64,000 bases of DNA from assembly GCA_018873225.1 (NCBI GenBank), contig JAEILZ010000007.1:1736001-1800000 (forward strand). The letters run 5' to 3'. The notes under the pieces were generated by a model. The model had not been told where the DNA came from. It saw only the letters and a program-made list of their open reading frames with translations, and did not search any database. The stretch comes from [Phialemoniopsis] sp. UDSM-2020 (taxonomy: Eukaryota > Ascomycota > Sordariomycetes > Thyridiales > Thyridiaceae). This document shows, piece by piece, positions 40,973 through 50,644 of this stretch; position 1 is the first letter of the stretch; each line of letters begins with the position of its first letter. Made by a program: the position numbers and the translations under genes.

Positions 40973-43900
40973 TCATCGCTTCTCATCACCGTCCTTCCCC
41001 CTTGACGTCCCCATGCTTCCACCATCTTCCTTGGGCACCGGCACCAGCAGCGTCTGCGGACTCCTGACCTTGATCTGCTGGTCCGCCCATGCCTGCATCC
41101 GTTGCACCGTCGACTGCGCAAAGGTTACGGCCTCGGTGAACTCCTTGTCCCACAGCGCCTGGCTCGTCGGCTGCAGCGACACGAGCGACCCCTCGATGTG
41201 CGCCAGGTACACGTGCAGCCCCTGCAGCGTCTCGAGCACCTCGTAGGGGGTCTCCTTGTCGTCCTGTGCCGGGAACAGCGCCTCGCGCAGGACGTGCGCG
41301 CGGTGCCGCCCGCGCTGCGTGTTCTCGCCGTACCGCTCGACGTGCGGCGCGAGCCGCGAGCGCATCTCGCCCGCCAGGCGGCGCATCGAGGTCAGGCCCG
41401 CGCGGATCTCGCGGTCGTGCACGACGCTGGGGATCAGGTCGGCGTAGATGGCGAGGAGCTGCACGGCCGTCTCGTACGTCTCGCCGAGCCAGAGCTCGAG
41501 GCGGCGCTCGCGGCCGCGGAGTTCGGCCTCGGACGTCGTGGCCGCGGCGTCCTTGCGCGAGGCCCTTTCCACCGCGGCGGATTGTTGCTCGCGGATGCGT
41601 GGGGAGTCTCTTGCTGTTGAGGGTGGGATCTTTTCGATCTTGATGGCGCCGGATTTGAATGTTGGCTGCTTGGATATCGGGTCCCATTGGCCTTGGGAGA
41701 GCTATGTCAGTCTTGTCATGATCAGAAGTCAGGGGTAGTGACGCGGGAGTACCGTACCGATGGTGAGCTCGTTGGCGGCTCGGGCTCGCCCGTCCTTGGA
41801 GTCAAAATATCCAAAATGGAATGGGATAAACGCCTGCCCCTTCTCAATACGCCCGACACGGACCTTGACCTCGACCGCGCCTCGTCGAGACTTGACGGCT
41901 ACCCATTCGCCATCGACGACCCTGTTCTCTTCGGCGTCCTGCTCCGAGATCCGTATCTCCGGGTCCGGGCACGCCTTTTGCAGCTGGGTCCTGCCTGTCT
42001 TGGTGCGCGTGTGGAAGTGGTGCGCCTTGCGGCCCGTGGACAGCCGGATGGGGTACTCGTCGTCTGGCTCCTCCACCGGCGGCACGTAGTGGCACCGCTT
42101 CAGGATGGCTCGCCCCGCCGGGTCCATGTCCCGGTACTCGCTCCTTGAGTAGGGCGCGCCGGTCTCGAGGTCGTGGCCGAAGCTCTCGCAGGCGTCGATG
42201 TCGGTGAAGAACAGGCGGTTCTCAAACAGCCTCTCGGCCCCGTTCGGATAGAGCTCGTTGCAGGGCCACTGGATCCCCGAGCCGCCCGTCAGCTTCTCGT
42301 ACGTGAGCCCGGTGTAGTCGCACGGCCTGCCGGCCGAGATCTTCTTCCACGCCTCAAAGACCTCCTCGGGCCGCGACCACGGCAGGAGCGCCTCGCCGTC
42401 CTTGTCCCTGAAGCCCATGAGGCGGGAGTAGTGCAGGAAGATGTTGAGGTCGGACCGGGCCTCCCCGGGGGGATCGACGGCCTTGTGCGAGAGGTGCACG
42501 GTGCGGTCGGCGTTGGTGAAACAGCCCGTCTTCTCGCCCCACTGCGCGGCGGGCAGGACCACGTCGGCGACGGCGGCCGTCTCGGTCATGTAGATGTCCT
42601 GGCAGACGACGAAGAGGTCGTCGCGCGTGAGCAGGCCGCGCACGCGCGGCAGGTCCGGCAGGCTGACGAGGGGGTTCGTCCCCGAGACCCAGAACATGCG
42701 GATCGAGCCGGCCTGCATGTAGCTCAGCATGTTTTCTATGTGCGTGGGCTCGTTCCAGTGCGGCACGCGGACGGGGTCGATGTTCCACAGGCGCGCGAGC
42801 TCGGCCATGTGCGCCGGGTTCTGGTGGTTGCGGAATCCGGGGAACTCGCCGTCGCAGCCGGCCTCGCGGTTGTTCTGCGCCGTGGGCTGCCCGTTCATCT
42901 GCAAGACGCCGCTGCCGGGCCTGCCGATCAGGCCGCGCAGGAGGTTGATGTTGTTGATCTGGCAAGCGCTCGCCGTGGCCTGGTTGGACTGGTAGACGCC
43001 CTGCAGGGCGGTGGAAAGCAGGGACTCGGCGGTGCCGATGACGCGGGCGGCCTCCCCGAGCCTGTGCGCCGGCACGCCGGTGATCTCCTCGACCCTGTCG
43101 GGCGGGTACGCCTCGACGGTGGCCCGGAGCTCGTCCAGCCCGATGACGTGCTGGGAGACAAAGTCGTCGTTGACATAGCCGTGCTTGAAGAGCAGGTGCT
43201 GGATGCCGTTGAGGAGGGCGAGGTTTGTGCCGATCTTGGGAGCTAGGTGGACCGTGGCTCTGCTCGCAGTCGCGGAGACCCTCGGGTCAACAACGATGAG
43301 CTGCGGAGGATTGGGTCCGTCCAGCCGGTCGAGGATGCGCGACCACAGGACTGTCTGAGTGGCAGCTACGTTGTGCCCTACCATGAAGAGGCAGTCCGTG
43401 TAGTCGACGTCGGCGTAGGATCCCGGCTGGCCGTCCGAGCCAAAGGACTCGCGCATCGACGCCGCAGCAGTGGCGGTACACAACCGCGTATTGCCGTCCC
43501 TTGCAGAGTCGTGTCAGTCTAATCCCCTGCAAACACTTCCTGTAGTGGACGGGACGACTCACATGTGCAGCGTGTGTAACCCTGCCTTGCCGATCAGGGC
43601 GAGGGCGTAGTACTCCTCCAGGAAAAGCTGCCCGCTCGTGTAGAAGGCGATAGCATGGTTCGTCAGGTGAGTTGACAGCTCCTTTGACTTGGAAGCGATG
43701 AGGCCCATGGCCTCATCCCAGGAGGCCCTTTCCAGTTTCCCATTCCGTCTGATCATGGGATACTTCAGCCTGTCCTTGTGATGAATGGCTTTCCATCTGG
43801 GGTACCTCGAAGTGTAAGTATGGTGTTGTTGTAGGACATCGGCACGTTTCTCTGGGGTTTCACAGAGAGGTCTGTGCCGTACGCAACAATGATGTGCTCA

Positions 43901-44247
43901 CCCGTGCAGGCCCTTTGGTCCCAGACGACCTTTATTAACTCGGTCAGTCGCACGACCCCTGACGCCAACTACCTTGCCGTCCTTGACGCCGATATCTAGA
44001 CCACAGCCATTGCTGTTTTACAAAGGCCAAAGAGGTTAACTGTCAATGCGGTGACACAGCGCTCAACAAGGACGGAGTGTGATGATTACCTGCAGAGTAC
44101 ACAGGCGCTTTGCACCCACTTGTCTGGTTCCTCGTCGCATGCCTTGTCCACCCTCGTCGGCCACTCGTGCTTATACGGAGTACGCTCACCCCAGATGTCT
44201 TCAATGGAGTTCCGGCTCTGGATGGCGGGCGCTCCACAAAGTTCCAT
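40973..44247 (-). CDS. Bacterial-type NasA-like molybdopterin oxidoreductase (predicted bis-MGD enzyme)
   Basis: Exons 44247..44090, 44012..43902, 43796..43563, 43499..41758 and 41691..40973 give 987 residues. It belongs to the DMSO-reductase superfamily and is most like assimilatory nitrate reductase/formate dehydrogenase alpha subunits of bacteria; it is not the eukaryotic sulfite-oxidase-type nitrate reductase. Seen: an N-terminal Fe-S segment C49-x2-C52-x3-C56, but Gly84 where a fourth Cys is expected (GRLGPKGL); GNTRLC175TATAA, whose Cys aligns with the Mo ligand of NasA; central molybdopterin-binding regions (FWVSGTNPL, VADVVLPAAQWGEKTGCFTN); a C-terminal dinucleotide-binding domain (about 640-770, ending ANELTIGQWDPISKQPTFKS). 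Then a helical extension of about 200 residues of unknown role. No heme, flavin or [2Fe-2S] domain, so a separate electron partner is needed. No targeting signal, so probably cytosolic. Substrate uncertain: nitrate is favoured. Exon 4 is very GC-rich. Likely acquired by transfer. Confidence 0.92.
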
Positions 44248-44937
44248 GGTTCTGGCAGTTCACTTGCACGCATCAAATTCGGAGCAGGTAGGATGATAAA
44301 AAAGGAGGATATCTTGGCATCCCATTGGCCTCAAATGGAGCTGAACATGATGGGCCCTTTCTCTTACTGCACCTACCAAGCCCCATCCCATCCCAGTCTA
44401 CCAACAGCGCTATACCTGACCATCATGGCCAACACCTATGGGTGCCAGCTTCCTGGTTCGGTATATCCTAAGGGCTCCGGGCTTTGATGGGATGTAAAAA
44501 GACCCACATCGGCCCTTCCGCGGGGTCGGTCCCAATGCGACGCCAGATCCGGCATCAAATGAACCATCCATGACGCTGCTATTACGGAGGTAGTAGGGCC
44601 AAGTTTTGCGGCTCGTGCAAGCCGTGTTAGTATTTTATGGACATCCCCCCACCTTGCCCACAGGACCGGTGGGTTTGCTCCGTCAAACAGGGAACTACGA
44701 TTCCAAATCCGGAACCTTGACTTCATCGCGAGTAATTGAATGTTCATAATCATATTGGCCATGGCATAGCAGTAGTGGAGCCTAGCATTCTCTTAGGATA
44801 TCCTTGGGTAACAAAAGGCCGTACTAGCGGTATCATATTAGCCAGACCGGTCCCACCTCCTCTGACTCTTGTATAAGTGTGATCGTAGTAGTGATAATTC
44901 TCTGTATACAGACACTCAATGGCAAGGTAAATAAACA
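44248..44937. promoter_or_regulatory. Shared divergent promoter of the NasA-like and MoeA-like genes, with two GATA sites
   Basis: 690 bp between divergent start codons. Two TGATAA sites (44294-44299 and 44892-44897) fit the HGATAR consensus of the nitrogen regulator AreA/NIT2, one near each gene start. I saw no CTCCGHGG site for the nitrate regulator NirA. Such short motifs arise by chance, so the regulatory reading is tentative. Confidence 0.4.
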
Positions 44938-46284
44938 ATGGGGACCCCATACAACACAGCTCTGGAGGACATCATCCGCTCGGCCAAAGACGCCCAGCAA
45001 TGCCGAGCCCGGCGCGGTGCCGACGCCTATACCGAATGCGTTCCGCTCGACGAAGCGGTAGGCCGTGTCGCGGCTGCCGACCTTCTAAGCCCCCTGTCGA
45101 CTCCAGAGCATGACACCTCGGCGATGGATGGCTATGCCATCCGCTCAATAGCCACCACCAGGGCGTCGGCGAGACAGCCCGTGGTGTTCCACATCATGGG
45201 CACCATCGCGGCCGGAGACGTGCCAGAATTCAACACGGACAAACTGGAGGAAGGCGTGGAGCCGTGCGTGGAGCTCATGACCGGCGCAAGATTCCCACCC
45301 ATCACGAATGGTATTGACTTTGACGCCTGCGTCAAGGCTGAGGACACCCAGCCCGTGCAGGACTCGAAGCGGCCCATGAGCGCCGGTGCGTACATGATGG
45401 TCACCAAGCCCGTGTTGCCGAACGCCAACCGTCGGCCTGCGGGACGTGATATCGCAAAGGGACAGGCCATAGTCCAAGCTGGCGAGCTCATCCAGCTGAG
45501 CCACATTCTGCCGCTTGCGTCTGTAGGCATCGAGACTGTGGTCGTCCAGAAGAAATTGCGAGTCGGGATCTGGTCGACGGGCAAAGAGCTCATCTCCGGC
45601 AAGAGCGGTGTGAGGGACGTGAACGGGCCGTATCTGATAGCTGCTTGTAGGGACATGGGCATTGACGCGAGATATCTCGGCACAATCGACGACAAGCCTG
45701 GACTCTTGAGGCGAGATATCAAGCTTCATGCGGATTCTGGCCAATTCGACCTGCTCATCACCACAGGGGCTGTGTCGGTCGGCAAATTCGACTTTGTGAG
45801 AGAAGCGATAGTGCATGTGGGAGGCTCGGTCGTCTTCCATGGTTTGGCAATACGCCCAGGTCACCCGGTGTTATTCGGACAACTGCCCTCCGATGGAGCC
45901 AGCACTCCGTTCTTCGGCCTCCCCGGCAATCCTGGTGCAGCAGCGGCATGCTTTCGCTTCCTCGTGGTGCCATATATACGCCAGTTGCAAGGAAGACCTC
46001 CAGAGGAACCCTTCGCCGCCAGGATAGTCAATGGCAAACCAGCCAGCGATCCCAAAGAGATGAGACCAGTCGTTCCACAACGGCAGGCTCGTGATTTCTT
46101 CCGATTAGGCGTTGTAGAGACAACAGCCGCTGGAGAGAATCTGGTGGAGTTGAGGAAGGAGCAGAGCCCAGCAAAATTGGGTCCATTCATCCAAGCAAAC
46201 TGCTGGGTGCATATCAGCGAGGGCAGCGAGGCACGAGACGGCGAGGACGTCCATTGCTATCACATTTCCCCGGACCAGCCTTAG
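44938..46284 (+). CDS. MoeA-like molybdopterin molybdenumtransferase (single domain)
   Basis: Single exon, 448 residues. MoeA-type enzymes insert molybdate into adenylylated molybdopterin. Seen: DTSAMDGYAI (59-68), the MoeA signature; IWSTGKELI (211-219); TTGAVSVGKFDFV (275-287), usually GGVSVG; LAIRPGHPVLFG (303-314); FFGLPGNPGAAAACF (325-339); then domain IV to the C-terminus. Fungi normally carry this activity as one half of a gephyrin/CnxE-type fusion with a MogA domain. This protein has no MogA domain and no intron, which is more like a bacterial MoeA. It is divergent from the NasA-like gene and its stop lies 25 bp from the stop of the MobA-like gene. An extra copy dedicated to the neighbouring enzyme is the best inference. 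Confidence 0.94.
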   Translation: MGTPYNTALEDIIRSAKDAQQCRARRGADAYTECVPLDEAVGRVAAADLLSPLSTPEHDTSAMDGYAIRSIATTRASARQPVVFHIMGTIAAGDVPEFNTDKLEEGVEPCVELMTGARFPPITNGIDFDACVKAEDTQPVQDSKRPMSAGAYMMVTKPVLPNANRRPAGRDIAKGQAIVQAGELIQLSHILPLASVGIETVVVQKKLRVGIWSTGKELISGKSGVRDVNGPYLIAACRDMGIDARYLGTIDDKPGLLRRDIKLHADSGQFDLLITTGAVSVGKFDFVREAIVHVGGSVVFHGLAIRPGHPVLFGQLPSDGASTPFFGLPGNPGAAAACFRFLVVPYIRQLQGRPPEEPFAARIVNGKPASDPKEMRPVVPQRQARDFFRLGVVETTAAGENLVELRKEQSPAKLGPFIQANCWVHISEGSEARDGEDVHCYHISPDQP

Positions 46285-46309
46285 GATTCTGGCCGTTAGC
46301 AGTGATACC

Positions 46310-46969
46310 TCACGCTGTCATCGAGCGAGCCTGCGATCCGAGCGTCTCCATGACTCTGTCCCAGTCAGACTTGGTGTCTGCGTCCCACAACCACCACTCA
46401 CATCCTTCGGGAGGGCTTATCAAGTTTCCCTCCAGTTGTCGAAAGGTGAAGCTGGGACCGCGTCGGCCTCTTTCCACATTATCGGCTAACACGTTGAGAG
46501 CTTCCGGGTCCCAGATCCCCAGAAGGGGCTCACAAAAGCCTTGTTCGTTGCAGAAACAGGTCACTGGCGGTTCGTAGGCGTCGACTAACTGGTGTAGTGC
46601 GTCCTGTGGAAGGAGAGGATAGTCGCAAGCCATCACGAGCCACGCGGCCTCTGGGTCTATTTTGTGTGCTGCTAGAAGTCCAGCAGAGGGACCTAAAGAT
46701 TCCCCGTGTTCGTCGTAGATTATCTCGAGATAGCCGTCTGTGTTCTCTGATCTGACAGCCTTGTCTAATAGCTCGTCTGTTGGCGAGGAAGGGGCAAGAG
46801 ATATGTGAACCGTGGAGATGGGAGGAAAGGCACCGCGAAGGAGATCTATCTGACGTTGATACAGTGGCTGTCCATCCGGCATGGAGAGAAGATGTTTAGG
46901 CGTGCCCATTCGTGTTGATCTGCCGCCGGCGAGGAGTAGCAGCTTGACCGTTGGATCCGAAGAAGTCAT
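46310..46969 (-). CDS. MobA-like molybdenum cofactor guanylyltransferase
   Basis: 219 residues from the ATG at 46969. An upstream in-frame ATG at 47101 would add 44 residues but moves the nucleotide-binding loop far from the N-terminus. Seen: LLLLAGGRSTRMGTPKHLL (10-28) with the LAGG-x3-RMG-x2-K nucleotidyltransferase loop; GPSAGLLAA (93-101); VMACDYPLLP (112-121) with the metal-binding Asp; EPLLGIWDPEAL (147-158). These four, in this order, are the MobA layout. MobA joins GMP to molybdopterin to make the dinucleotide used by DMSO-reductase-family enzymes, and I know of no general need for it in fungi. A cytidylyltransferase (MocA-like) or another NTP-transferase role is possible, but a bis-MGD-type oxidoreductase next door favours MobA. 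Convergent with the MoeA-like gene. Confidence 0.86.
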   Translation of the reverse strand: MTSSDPTVKLLLLAGGRSTRMGTPKHLLSMPDGQPLYQRQIDLLRGAFPPISTVHISLAPSSPTDELLDKAVRSENTDGYLEIIYDEHGESLGPSAGLLAAHKIDPEAAWLVMACDYPLLPQDALHQLVDAYEPPVTCFCNEQGFCEPLLGIWDPEALNVLADNVERGRRGPSFTFRQLEGNLISPPEGCEWWLWDADTKSDWDRVMETLGSQARSMTA

Positions 46970-47602: not shown

Positions 47603-48905
47603 ATGGCGTCTCCCGGGCGCAAGAACCAGGTCTGCGGGTCCCGGCCCCGGCGCCGCCCTTCCTCCCCGTTCCGGCTTGCCCTCCGCAACTTCACGTCCCA
47701 ATGGTTTCTTCTCCCCCAGGGCACCGGCATCATATCTGTGATTCTGCACCAGCTCGACTACCAATTTCACGGGCTGTACATTATATCTTACATCTTTTGG
47801 GTCATCAACATCATCCTCTTCTTCTCATTTCTGGGTCTGTACATCACTCGCATTGTCCTCTTCCCGGACCACGTCGCCAACGCGCTACGCTACCAGAATA
47901 GCGAGATCGACTGCCTGGCGTCCATATCCATAGCGTTCACCTCCATCCTGCAGATGATGGCGATAGTGTGCACCGGCGGGTGGGGGAAGGGTTGGGGCCT
48001 CGCCGCCTACATTCTGTGGTGGCTCAATGCCGCGCTCGCCGTCATTGCCGCAGTCGGGATTCCCTTCGTGTACATCCGTGTCTATCCCATGGGCATCTCG
48101 AAACTCTCCCCGCCGGCGCAGCTGCCGCTCATCGCGACCCTCACAGCTGCCGCTGGCTGCGGCACGATGTGCCAGTACGCCGACATCAGCCCGCAGCTGC
48201 AGGTCCCCGCCATCATTTTCAGCTATCTCCTCGTCGGTGCCTCACTTCCCCTGGCATTCAGTCTCGACAGTCTCTTCTGGACGAGGCTCTTGGAAGGCTC
48301 CTTCCCCGCACCCAAGATGACGTACCAGGACATGATCCTCTGCGGGCCTTGGGGCCAAGGGAGCTTTGCACTGCAGGGGCTCGGCCAGGCAGTGACCAAG
48401 GGTGCTTTTGCAGAGTATGCAGCCGGTGTGTTCATTACGAGCCAGGCGGCGCCTGTGGTCGGCTTTGGGAGTATGTTCGCCGGACTGCTCTCGTGGGGAT
48501 TCGGCACGTTCTGGTGGTTGTTTGCCATTGGGAGCATCCTACACGCTGCGTCTGATCATTGGCGTCCGCAACGGCTTGCATTCGGGCTGGTGACTTGGTC
48601 CTTGGTGTTTCCATGGGTGAGTCTTTCTTTGATAACTGGCGGCTTGGATTTGGTGACAAAAAAGCTGATAAATTTGTCAGGGTGTGTACACGAATGCTGC
48701 AGTAATGCTCGGAAAGCTGTTGGACTCACGGGCATTCAAGGTCTGGTCGACCGTCCTTGCCCTCGTGCTTGTCATCATTTGGCTTTGCAACATCTTCTAC
48801 ACGGTCAAGGGCGTGCTTAATGGTTCTCTGCTAGGGCTGGAACATGGTTGGAAGAGGGCAAAGTACGGCGATGAAGAGGCAGAGAACGGAGAAGTAGAGC
48901 ACTGA
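47603..48905 (+). CDS. TDT/SLAC1-family anion transporter (TehA/Mae1/Ssu1-like)
   Basis: Exons 47603..48616 and 48681..48905 give 412 residues with about ten hydrophobic helices after a basic N-terminus (residues 1-28). Family landmarks: FTSQWFLLPQGTGIISVILHQL at the first helix (the usual PxGTG), helix-loop repeats, LSWGFGTFWWLFAIGSILHA in the late helices and WSLVFPWGVYTNAAVMLGK at the penultimate helix. The C-terminus is acidic. Relatives export sulfite (Ssu1), import malate (Mae1) or conduct nitrate and chloride (plant SLAC1), so the substrate cannot be read from the family. Beside a NasA-like enzyme, nitrate or nitrite is an attractive but unproven cargo. The start is the first ATG; TTG upstream is ignored. 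Confidence 0.87.
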
Positions 48906-48990: not shown

Positions 48991-49723
48991 TCAATCCTTT
49001 GGAAACTTTCGAAACGCATCCATCAGCTTGTCAAGCGGCGCCGCCATCAGTCCGGCCACTGTCTCAAAAGGCGGCTTGTCGGGGGCAGATGGGTGGCTCC
49101 GAGTCGGAACAAACATCTTGGTCCGCTCAAAGCTTTTGGCGAGGTTCTCCGAATCCTCCGCGGAAAGGCTCTTCTCAAGTGCGGGCAAGTCGTTCTCCTC
49201 TTCCTCCTTGATGTGTTCTTTCAGATCAGAGTATAGAGCTTTGAGGGCGGTAACGAACTCGGCATCCTGTGTACCCATCCCCTGAAACTTGTGCAGCTCA
49301 ATCTTGACCTGAGTAAAACGCTGTTAGCAACTTAGGAGGACATCACAATCCGATTATTGACGAGCATTACTATACCTTTTGATGGTCGTTGCGGTCTTTG
49401 TCCGCGAACTGCTTCCCATTTGGCACACTCTTCTCCAGAACCGGGTAGACAACAATTTCCTCGCCCACTGAGTGGCGGGCAAGCTCCCACACAAACAGAT
49501 TCTGGTATCTCTCCTGCTCCTCTTTGTCTGTGGAGTTGATGATACGATTGTAGTAATCCCCTAGCTCCCTGTGGTCATGCTTGATGACGTCTGAGATGGT
49601 GGGAGCCATCGTGGTCGGAGTAGATGAGAATCGACGATGCGAAATAAGCAATGGTGCTCTGTGGAAGGATGCTTGGCTCACCCTCGGGAGAGTAATACGT
49701 ATAGTAGCAGGGAGACTGAACAT
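48991..49723 (-). CDS. Hemerythrin-like HHE cation-binding protein, probably mitochondrial
   Basis: Exons 49723..49376 and 49308..48991 give 221 residues; an upstream ATG at 49786 would add 21. The N-terminus (MFSLPATIRITLPRVSQ, then HRRFSSTPTT) is basic and Ser-rich with an RRF-SS cleavage-like site, suggesting mitochondrial import; an ATG just after it (MAPTISDV) could give a cytosolic form. The hemerythrin domain shows VIKHDHRELGDYY, ARHSVGEEIVVYPVLE, DRNDHQKVKIELHK and KEHIKEEEENDLP: the His and Glu residues that bind a di-iron or other metal pair. Such proteins bind O2, NO or iron, or sense oxidants. Tail-to-tail with the transporter (85 bp). A role in handling NO from nitrate metabolism is only a guess. 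Confidence 0.9.
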
Positions 49724-49786
49724 GGTGAAGGGACGTGATATGAGGTGAAGGCGTAGCGGCGGGAGGAGAGTGATAGTCATCCACAA

Positions 49787-50644
49787 TGTCTTTTATCTTC
49801 ATAAGGACTCCGAGACAGCGTTCTAGGTTGTATGGCAAACAATCAAACCAATCACAGCTACTCTATTGAAAATAAACTGCGAGAACTTGCGGTGATAATG
49901 ACGTCTGGTGTTACTGAGCTTCGAAGGGGCTGCATCATGTAGACTCTAAAAATCTTGCCCTTACGGCAAGCACATACCATCAATAGGGACGAATGAAATC
50001 ACTAGCGGAGAGAATCTCCGGATTGATATAGGATTTGGCTTTTTGAAGAAAACAAAAAAGAAAAACGCAGGAACAAACGACTGAGGATGCTCATGCCCGC
50101 AGCCGCAAACGCAGGGGTGCTCCAATTATTCCGTCATCGTGACAGCCGTTACGAATGGGGGCCCGCCCGAAGAACGAAATATTTCAGATCTGCGCGTCAT
50201 CATGTAAGATGCAAATAATGCCCACATGTCTAAAGAAGTAAAGGACTCAATTCTATACGAAGATACAGAAAGACCCCGACTGACAGTTTCGAGAGGCGCG
50301 AGTTCTTGGTGAGGGAGCAATACCTATGGTGATCGGGTGGCTGCCGGGAAAGGTTCCGGAAGGTGCCTGACCGGCCCCACACCAGCTTACCCCGGATTCT
50401 GGAGCTTCTGGTCCGGGGCAGCTCTGCGTACCACAGGGAGATCAGCACACATCGTGACCACAGACAGGGTCACTCTCGCGTCAATGAAATAGACTCTGAA
50501 AACAATAACCGCAATCGTATATATGATGCAGGTGGCGTAGGCACCTAAGCCATATACATGTCCTTCATTAAAAATCCTCGGCATCGTCACAATCTCAGAT
50601 GATTAGCAACCTCCGGACGTCTACCTCATTTTGTCCTCAACACA
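49787..50644. promoter_or_regulatory. Divergent intergenic region, hemerythrin/NmrA-like
   Basis: About 860 bp, relatively AT-rich in places (A-run at 50050-50065), between divergent genes. Only short open frames; no gene seen. Confidence 0.4.

What the first reader, a model, noticed from the sequence alone, without database searches (positions are those of the whole stretch)
40973..46969. A bacterial-style bis-MGD molybdoenzyme module (NasA-like, MoeA-like, MobA-like) in a fungal chromosome
Three adjacent genes encode a DMSO-reductase-family oxidoreductase with an Fe-S segment, a free-standing MoeA and a MobA-like guanylyltransferase. Known eukaryotic molybdoenzymes (nitrate reductase, sulfite oxidase, xanthine dehydrogenase, mARC) use mono-pterin Moco, so an enzyme predicted to need the dinucleotide, next to the gene predicted to make it, forms a coherent portable unit. 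The introns in the NasA-like gene show it is domesticated, not contamination. Flanking genes are ordinary fungal ones.
Basis: partly seen in the sequence, partly recalled or inferred. Interest (0 to 1): 0.92.

Follow-up and report, generated by a model that had tools for sequence, protein, structure and literature searches.

The report
Fungal bis-MGD molybdoenzyme with cofactor genes
A fungal chromosome carries a bacterial-type molybdenum enzyme next to two genes predicted to finish its two-pterin cofactor, a form described as found only in prokaryotes; the enzyme looks old and shared by many fungi rather than a recent stray import.

Summary
Three genes lie in 6 kb: a DMSO-reductase-family enzyme ("NAS", 987 aa, five exons), a free-standing MoeA (448 aa) and a MobA-like guanylyltransferase (219 aa). 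NAS is the only true DMSO-reductase-family gene found in the genome, MobA its only NTP_transf_3 gene found, and MoeA is distinct from the genome's MogA-MoeA fusion. Two or all three are neighbours in seven other ascomycetes. NAS is a distinct subfamily below every curated cut-off, closest to Desulfovibrio NapA, with a nitrate-reductase-like Mo-Cys site and without the formate-dehydrogenase residues. The fourth Fe-S cysteine is Gly in 62 of 62 sequences, and a ferritin-like four-helix domain is appended. Best reading: a cytosolic oxyanion (probably nitrate) reductase using bis-MGD made by its own MoeA/MobA branch. Cofactor, substrate and electron donor are inferred, not shown. A review read in passages says dinucleotide Moco was found only in prokaryotes.

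The parts
40973..44247 (-). NAS: DMSO-reductase-family molybdoenzyme, five exons, 987 aa; catalytic part about residues 1-769, C-terminal ferritin-like domain about 800-966
   Evidence: gene model; Pfam; NCBIfam; PDB sequence hits; AF2 of orthologue P0001; Foldseek
44938..46284 (+). free-standing MoeA (molybdopterin molybdotransferase), intronless, 448 aa, no MogA domain
   Evidence: tree; active-site positions
46310..46969 (-). MobA-like molybdenum cofactor guanylyltransferase, intronless, 219 aa; only NTP_transf_3 gene found in the genome
   Evidence: tree
44248..44937 (.). 690-base divergent intergenic region between NAS and MoeA (candidate shared promoter; inference)
   Evidence: coordinates
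47603..48905 (+). SLAC1/TDT-family anion channel gene beside MobA (one intron near the 3' end, exact splice sites not settled); possible fourth member
   Evidence: PF03595 E=3e-61; C-terminal exon; SLAC1-type genes also lie near NAS in 8 of 80 bacterial loci

Best explanation
This is a eukaryotic bis-MGD branch: one molybdoenzyme plus its two dedicated cofactor genes. The fungus makes ordinary Moco with its own pathway (fused MogA-MoeA on C7). The second, bacterial-type MoeA is proposed to load Mo into pterin destined for MobA, which joins GMP to give bis-MGD. NAS would bind bis-MGD through a cysteine ligand in the cytosol, pass electrons through a three-cysteine Fe-S cluster, and reduce a small oxyanion, most probably nitrate. 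Its ferritin-like C-terminal domain would serve docking, maturation or electron delivery, and the SLAC1 channel next door may move the anion substrate or product. Shown here: gene structures, adjacency in other fungi, single fungal clades for the sampled proteins, conserved motifs, ferritin-like fold prediction. Inferred: cofactor identity, substrate, electron donor, localisation, channel role. The confidence given is for the enzyme-plus-cofactor-branch claim; for nitrate alone I would say a little under one half.
For: Dinucleotide-binding domain PF01568 and domain PF00384. An AF2 model of orthologue P0001 (pLDDT 89.4) matches Desulfovibrio NapA, TM 0.92 by target length, E 3.6e-57. Mo-Cys in 61 of 62 rows (one gap), the three Fe-S Cys in 61-62 of 62, and TNP, DPR, TGR and HTR.K nearly invariant (their roles recalled). 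NAS, MoeA and MobA carry consecutive tags in Thermocarpiscus (6062/6061/6060); NAS+MoeA consecutive or near in Corynascus sepedonium, Fusarium lateritium, F. coffeatum and Verticillium longisporum; NAS+MobA in Helicocarpus and Trapelia; in Monosporascus GIB2 NAS and MoeA are joined in one gene model, P0026. MobA is the sole NTP_transf_3 gene found. The Asp, Thr and Glu of the MoeA motif positions are kept in 16 of 16 fungal rows. Nitrate leaning: NapA is the best PDB match; the FDH residues are replaced, Thr after the Mo-Cys in 61 of 62 rows and Asn at the FDH Arg site in 62 of 62; nearby bacterial genes include HPP (12 of 80 loci) and SLAC1 (8 of 80), and FNT plus HPP in Deinococcus.
Against: No biochemistry. 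The best NCBIfam model by score is formate dehydrogenase alpha (492 bits, cut-off 666), above NasC (406, cut-off 1100). The genome already has two nitrate-reductase-like SO-family genes (L087, L089), so NAS is not needed for ordinary nitrate assimilation. A review says fungi use their assimilatory enzymes in dissimilatory nitrate reduction (PMC4686598), and a metaproteome with 15 fungi found none of their detected proteins in nitrogen reduction (PMC11653725). Of 115 neighbouring bacterial proteins scanned (of 135 nearest; HPP, SLAC1 and the small helical protein taken out beforehand), no nitrate or nitrite enzyme family is among the 25 commonest. No MobB, FdhD or NarJ-type gene or dedicated electron donor was recognised among the cluster genes examined. 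MoeA and MobA relatives lie near NAS in only 1 of 80 bacterial loci. MoeA has a fungus-specific Lys-to-His change (RPGHP, 16 of 16) of unknown effect, and its domain IV (PF03454) was not matched. MobA-like is below the MobA equivalog cut-off.
Confidence: 0.72

Rival explanations
1. Same bis-MGD module, but the substrate is not nitrate: another oxyanion or S-/N-oxide (chlorate, selenate, arsenite and the like), used for detoxification or redox balance rather than nitrogen metabolism.
For: Two ordinary NR-like genes already present; NAS is below all curated nitrate reductase cut-offs shown; bacterial neighbourhoods are mixed; three-Cys Fe-S segment as in AioA arsenite oxidase (recalled).
Against: NapA is the best sequence and fold match; GQP..RE motif and Mo-Cys kept; AioA matches much more weakly (E 1e-17) and, from memory, lacks a protein Mo ligand.
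Confidence: 0.3
2. It is a formate dehydrogenase or CO2 reductase.
For: TIGR01591 Fdh-alpha gives the highest NCBIfam score (492 bits); FdhF (7qv7) is close behind NapA in the PDB profile search; FdhD near NAS-HPP in Halomonas KO116 and in 2 of 115 neighbours scanned.
Against: The residue after the Mo ligand is Thr, not His, in 61 of 62 rows (Lys in one) and the FDH Arg is Asn in 62 of 62 (FDH roles recalled); in Halomonas a separate fdhF lies in the same stretch and can explain FdhD.
Confidence: 0.12
3. The MobA-like protein is a different nucleotidyltransferase (for example MocA-like or non-Moco) and NAS uses mono-pterin Moco or is catalytically dead.
For: MobA-like is only 60 bits against TIGR02665 (cut-off 151.85); the best-scoring bacterial relatives are MobA-MoaD fusions rather than ordinary MobA.
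Against: The MobA model outscores the MocA model (60 against 24 bits); linked to the DMSO-reductase-family gene in other fungi; PF01568 is a dinucleotide-binding domain; catalytic motifs nearly invariant.
Confidence: 0.08
4. One reading: a portable unit spread among scattered fungi by recent bacterial transfers.
For: All three have bacterial relatives; fungal MoeA groups with the two MoeAs of a deltaproteobacterial MAG in which one copy and a MobA lie within about 8 kb of NAS; Trichoderma groups with Coniochaeta, not Fusarium, in NAS and MobA.
Against: One fungal clade for NAS (33 of 33 fungal rows), broadly following the species tree; one clade each for sampled MoeA and MobA; only 1 of 80 bacterial loci has a MoeA relative near NAS.
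Confidence: 0.07

Closest known systems
Periplasmic nitrate reductase NapA of Desulfovibrio desulfuricans (2nap/2v45)
   Same: Best sequence and fold match over residues 38-769; Mo-Cys; bis-MGD architecture; similar catalytic chain length
   Different: NAS lacks the fourth Fe-S Cys, has no obvious export signal by eye, carries a ferritin-like C-terminal domain, and is 335 bits against the NapA cut-off of 904
Assimilatory nitrate reductases NasC / NarB
   Same: Fe4S4, molybdopterin and dinucleotide-binding domains in one chain; GQP..RE motif (resemblance recalled)
   Different: 406 bits against a cut-off of 1100 for NasC; the NarB-like row L100 (37% to P0105; label recalled) was set as outgroup and joins the other outgroup rows; fourth Cys absent
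Bacterial 'nitrate reductase' subfamily, in part beside HPP/SLAC1 genes (Massilia, Halomonas, Deinococcus, Hymenobacter, Arthrobacter)
   Same: Orthologues, 49-63% identity over the best segment in the 80 loci kept, same three-Cys segment, same C-terminal domain fused or as a separate downstream protein
   Different: MoeA and MobA usually not linked; no introns
Fungal CnxE / gephyrin (MogA-MoeA fusion)
   Same: MoeA_N and MoCF_biosynth domains
   Different: Window MoeA is free-standing and groups with MoeAs of a deltaproteobacterial MAG, away from the genome's own CnxE
Bacterioferritin / YciE-YciF / rubrerythrin (ferritin superfamily)
   Different: No Foldseek match at E 0.001 or below; diiron ligand motifs look degenerate by eye

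Membership tests
DMSO reductase (bis-MGD molybdoenzyme) family | PF00384 plus PF01568 domains above cut-off | tested here: met
   195 and 86.5 bits against cut-offs 24 and 26.8
DMSO reductase (bis-MGD molybdoenzyme) family | Two MGD bound to one Mo | not testable with these tools
   needs the purified protein
DMSO reductase (bis-MGD molybdoenzyme) family | Protein ligand to Mo (Cys/Ser/Sec/Asp) | tested here: met
   Cys aligned with the NapA Mo-Cys, 61 of 62 rows, one gap
NapA/NasA/NarB nitrate reductases | Score above a curated equivalog cut-off | tested here: not met
   NapA 335/904, NasC 406/1100, NasA_Halo 348/1000
NapA/NasA/NarB nitrate reductases | CxxCxxxC...C 4Fe-4S motif | tested here: not met
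   fourth position Gly in 62 of 62
NapA/NasA/NarB nitrate reductases | Nitrate reduction | not testable with these tools
   no assay
Formate dehydrogenase alpha (TIGR01591) | Score above cut-off | tested here: not met
   492 of 666 bits
Formate dehydrogenase alpha (TIGR01591) | His after the Mo ligand and active-site Arg (recalled) | tested here: not met
   Thr 61 of 62 and Lys 1; Asn 62 of 62
MoeA | MoeA_N and MoCF_biosynth domains, active-site acidic and Thr positions | tested here: met
MoeA | Domain IV (PF03454) | tested here: inconclusive
   no Pfam match, but alignment to E. coli MoeA continues to residue 427
MobA guanylyltransferase | PF12804 above cut-off | tested here: met
   91.6 against 27 bits
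MobA guanylyltransferase | TIGR02665 equivalog cut-off | tested here: not met
   60 against 151.85 bits
MobA guanylyltransferase | GMP transfer to pterin | not testable with these tools
   no assay
Ferritin superfamily (C-terminal domain) | four-helix ferritin-like fold | tested here: met
Ferritin superfamily (C-terminal domain) | diiron ligands | tested here: inconclusive
   ExxH motifs not seen by eye in A4; no structure-based ligand mapping done

The most novel reading that the evidence does not exclude
Fungi hold an ancient, nuclear-encoded bis-MGD branch: a cytosolic DMSO-reductase-family nitrate reductase of a new architecture (three-Cys Fe-S centre, ferritin-like domain) with its own MoeA and MobA, the enzyme conserved from chytrids to ascomycetes. 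It would break the rule that dinucleotide molybdenum cofactors and this enzyme family are prokaryotic only, and would offer a genetic candidate for the poorly characterised dissimilatory nitrate reductase of denitrifying fungi such as Fusarium.
Probability: 0.45. Interest if true: 0.93.

Novelty: new variant of a known kind. Interest (0 to 1): 0.84.

Why it matters
Passages read here state that dinucleotide Moco forms were found only in prokaryotes and that MobAB has no counterpart in plants, fungi and humans (PMC9370521), that eukaryotes have only members of the SO, XO and mARC families (PMC6147048; its eukaryote search for molybdoproteins used human SO, XO and mARC proteins), and that fungal MoeA is either fused or lost (PMC11733289). 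This locus, if it works as predicted, conflicts with all three. It would add a molybdoenzyme class and a cofactor branch to eukaryotes and makes a candidate for fungal dissimilatory nitrate reductase testable (PMC4686598, calls those enzymes less well characterised).

Tried and rejected
Contamination: rejected (four GT-AG introns that restore one open frame, fungal flanks, fungal orthologues at up to 75% identity). Formate dehydrogenase: weighed and downgraded on active-site residues, although TIGR01591 is the top NCBIfam score. Complex I subunit: the other PF00384 gene found is the NuoG/NDUFS1 type (L001). MoeA as a duplicate of the fungal CnxE: rejected by the tree (which left out 1 of 18 bacterial rows, L138, for length; a first build, used some wrong reading frames and was replaced; there fungal MoeA still grouped, at 70/0 support). 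MobA tree: in the first build fungi were not one clade, because a very long bacterial row (L169) joined the window row and only 12% of bootstrap trees had one fungal clade; the second dropped 7 of 11 ordinary bacterial rows (L143, L145, L147, L151, L153, L154, L169), kept 4 and added one Trichoderma row. M. smegmatis NR paper (PMC7816997, passages): no link to this subfamily established. Viral contigs scan with MobA found no relative. Pfam tally of bacterial neighbours gave no clear theme. A P450 family search of the genome was not useful. A paper search for locus tags found nothing. A family not listed by VIA-align is not excluded.

Limits: the protein searches list only the best 120 of 7877, 246 and 4666 hits, so presence and absence across fungi is not mapped and non-fungal eukaryotes are not excluded. 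Only the best 80 of 555 bacterial loci were kept, and some are cut short. The NAS tree used 32 hand-picked named fungi plus the window, 40 bacterial-locus rows (one filed as an archaeal MAG), quick search, SH-aLRT only; the base among bacteria and fungi is unresolved, so the donor is unknown. Five of the ten unnamed rows fell in the fungal clade and five among bacteria. HPP and SLAC1 counts rest on BLAST clusters with one member each checked by Pfam. NAS was recognised as an ORF in 71 of 80 loci. Diiron-ligand loss was judged by eye.
Full report
What is there. The finding's span 40973-46969 holds exactly three genes. NAS is on the minus strand in five exons with four GT-AG introns and encodes 987 aa. 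MoeA is on the plus strand, intronless, 448 aa, its start 690 bases from the NAS start in divergent orientation. MobA is on the minus strand, 219 aa, its end 25 bases from the MoeA end. Pfam confirms each. The window lies in a 44.2 Mb, 11-contig genome; the flanks hold ordinary eukaryotic genes where Pfam names them.

The genome around it. Two PF00384 genes were found: NAS and a complex I NuoG-type gene. PF12804 hits only the window's MobA. PF00994 hits the window's MoeA and a fused MogA-MoeA on C7 with a His-rich linker. The five sulfite-oxidase-family matches appear to be four genes; of the three scanned, two have FAD_binding_6 nearby and look like nitrate reductases and one looks like a sulfite oxidase; the fourth was not scanned. 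So ordinary eukaryotic Moco enzymes are present and NAS is extra. These searches run exon by exon in six frames and give lower bounds.

Linkage in other fungi. From the names in the three protein searches two or all three genes have neighbouring tags in 7 species: Thermocarpiscus VTK56DRAFT_6062/6061/6060 (all three); NAS+MoeA in Corynascus sepedonium (6390/6392), Fusarium lateritium (002322/002321), F. coffeatum (10029/10028) and Verticillium longisporum (006324/006323); NAS+MobA in Helicocarpus (03243/03242) and Trapelia (005159/005161). In Monosporascus GIB2 one gene model joins NAS and MoeA (P0026); they must lie on the same strand there, whereas here they diverge, so the order was rearranged but the linkage kept. 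Only the best 120 hits per search are listed, so this is a floor, not a survey; species without linkage were not counted.

History. The NAS tree (88 rows: the window and 32 named fungi, 40 bacterial-locus rows, 10 unnamed, 5 outgroup) puts all 33 fungal rows, with 5 unnamed rows, in one clade (SH-aLRT 100). Inside, chytrid and basidiomycete rows branch early, Saitoella is sister to Pezizomycotina (94), and most classes group. That is one old acquisition followed mainly by vertical descent. The base of the subfamily is unresolved, so no donor can be named. MoeA: 16 of 16 fungal free-standing rows (the window and 15 named, all Pezizomycotina) form a clade (100/100) that groups with the two MoeAs of a deltaproteobacterial MAG (100/99), not with the genome's CnxE; in that MAG one MoeA and a MobA lie within about 8 kb of NAS. 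In a wider look 56 of 191 genomes of that phylum had a MoeA match, the best at 36-40% identity, so the MoeA type is not tied to NAS. MobA: 18 of 18 fungal rows form a clade (99/98; not so in the first build). By score its nearest bacterial relatives in hand are MobA-MoaD fusions (77-84 bits) against 17 bits for the MobA beside NAS in that MAG, but in the tree the latter, on a long branch, shares an unresolved fork with fungi and fusions. Whether the three genes came from one source is open. Trichoderma pairs with Coniochaeta in NAS (100) and MobA (99/97), with different Coniochaeta species in the two trees, which suggests cluster movement between fungi; in the MoeA tree the only Trichoderma row, T. 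barbatum, does not pair with Coniochaeta.

The enzyme. NAS best matches Desulfovibrio NapA by sequence (E 6.8e-111; 4.6e-154 as a profile) and by fold (TM 0.92 by target length, using an AF2 model of the Thermocarpiscus orthologue P0001, pLDDT 89.4). It passes none of the NCBIfam cut-offs shown; the highest score is formate dehydrogenase alpha at 492 of 666 bits. In 62 aligned sequences the Mo-Cys is present in 61 (one gap), the next residue is Thr in 61 and Lys in one, the FDH Arg position is Asn in 62, the three Fe-S cysteines are kept in 61-62, and the fourth cysteine is Gly in 62 of 62, with the following Lys kept. The roles of these residues in NapA and FdhH are recalled. A 3Fe-4S cluster or a cluster with a non-Cys ligand is therefore likely.

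Cofactor branch. In 16 of 16 fungal MoeA rows the Asp of SAMDG, the Thr of MTG, the Glu of the STGxE segment and the two later Asp positions are kept (surrounding letters vary: STG in 14 of 16, for example), but all 16 have RPGHP where 7 of 8 bacterial rows and CnxE have Lys and one has Arg. MobA-like scores 60 bits with the MobA model TIGR02665 and 24 with the MocA model. With NAS beside them, the simplest reading is a dedicated route from Mo-pterin to bis-MGD. No MobB or maturation chaperone was recognised among the cluster genes.

Function. Bacterial neighbours give a modest hint of small anions: HPP-type membrane proteins in 12 of 80 loci (one about 4 kb away, one upstream), SLAC1-type channels in 8 of 80, all Bacteroidota by title, and FNT plus HPP in Deinococcus. 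HPP proteins as nitrite transporters are recalled. The fungal cluster itself has a SLAC1 gene next to MobA (PF03595 3e-61) and then a hemerythrin-domain gene; whether other fungi keep these is not tested. Against this, the commonest families in 115 bacterial neighbours show no nitrogen theme, the genome has ordinary nitrate reductases, and PMC4686598 says fungi use assimilatory enzymes in dissimilatory mode. I put nitrate at a little under one half, another oxyanion or oxide next, formate low.

Literature. Passages read: PMC9370521 (dinucleotide forms only in prokaryotes; MobAB without counterpart in plants, fungi, humans), PMC6147048 (three families only in eukaryotes; searched with human SO, XO and mARC), PMC11733289 (fungal MoeA fused or lost), PMC4686598 (fungal dissimilatory nitrate reductases less characterised). 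[quoted passage not shown] the passages I saw name no eukaryotic member. PMC7816997, PMC7969357, PMC10889981 and PMC11653725: passages, nothing on this gene. The listings of searches showed no paper describing a fungal bis-MGD enzyme or MobA; the library lacks most subscription papers. Public records already label the fungal proteins 'nitrate reductase' or '4Fe-4S Mo/W bis-MGD-type', so the genes are annotated though apparently unstudied.

Verdict. Observation confirmed; interpretation partly supported. A new variant of a known enzyme family with a strong and testable claim about eukaryotic cofactor chemistry.

Noticed in passing
window 48991-49792 (-): Hemerythrin HHE-domain gene after the SLAC1 gene (PF01814), with an N-terminus that by eye looks like a mitochondrial presequence; a hemerythrin gene also lies just upstream of NAS in bacterial locus L003.
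   Followed up: partly
window 40973-46969: Third-position GC differs strongly among the three genes: NAS 0.856, MoeA 0.667, MobA 0.566; the NAS bin 42001-44000 is the most GC-rich of the 2-kb bins of the window.
   Followed up: no
P0005, P0035, P0121, P0122, P0142: Trichoderma groups with Coniochaeta rather than Fusarium in NAS and MobA trees, suggesting transfer of the cluster between fungi.
   Followed up: partly
P0226-P0240: Bacterial proteins with MobA followed by MoaD in one chain are the best-scoring bacterial relatives of fungal MobA in the listed hits.
   Followed up: partly
L009, JAAZOW010000297.1: A contig filed under a Methanomicrobiales MAG carries a NAS gene close to an unnamed metagenome row P0117 and may be a binning error.
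   Followed up: no
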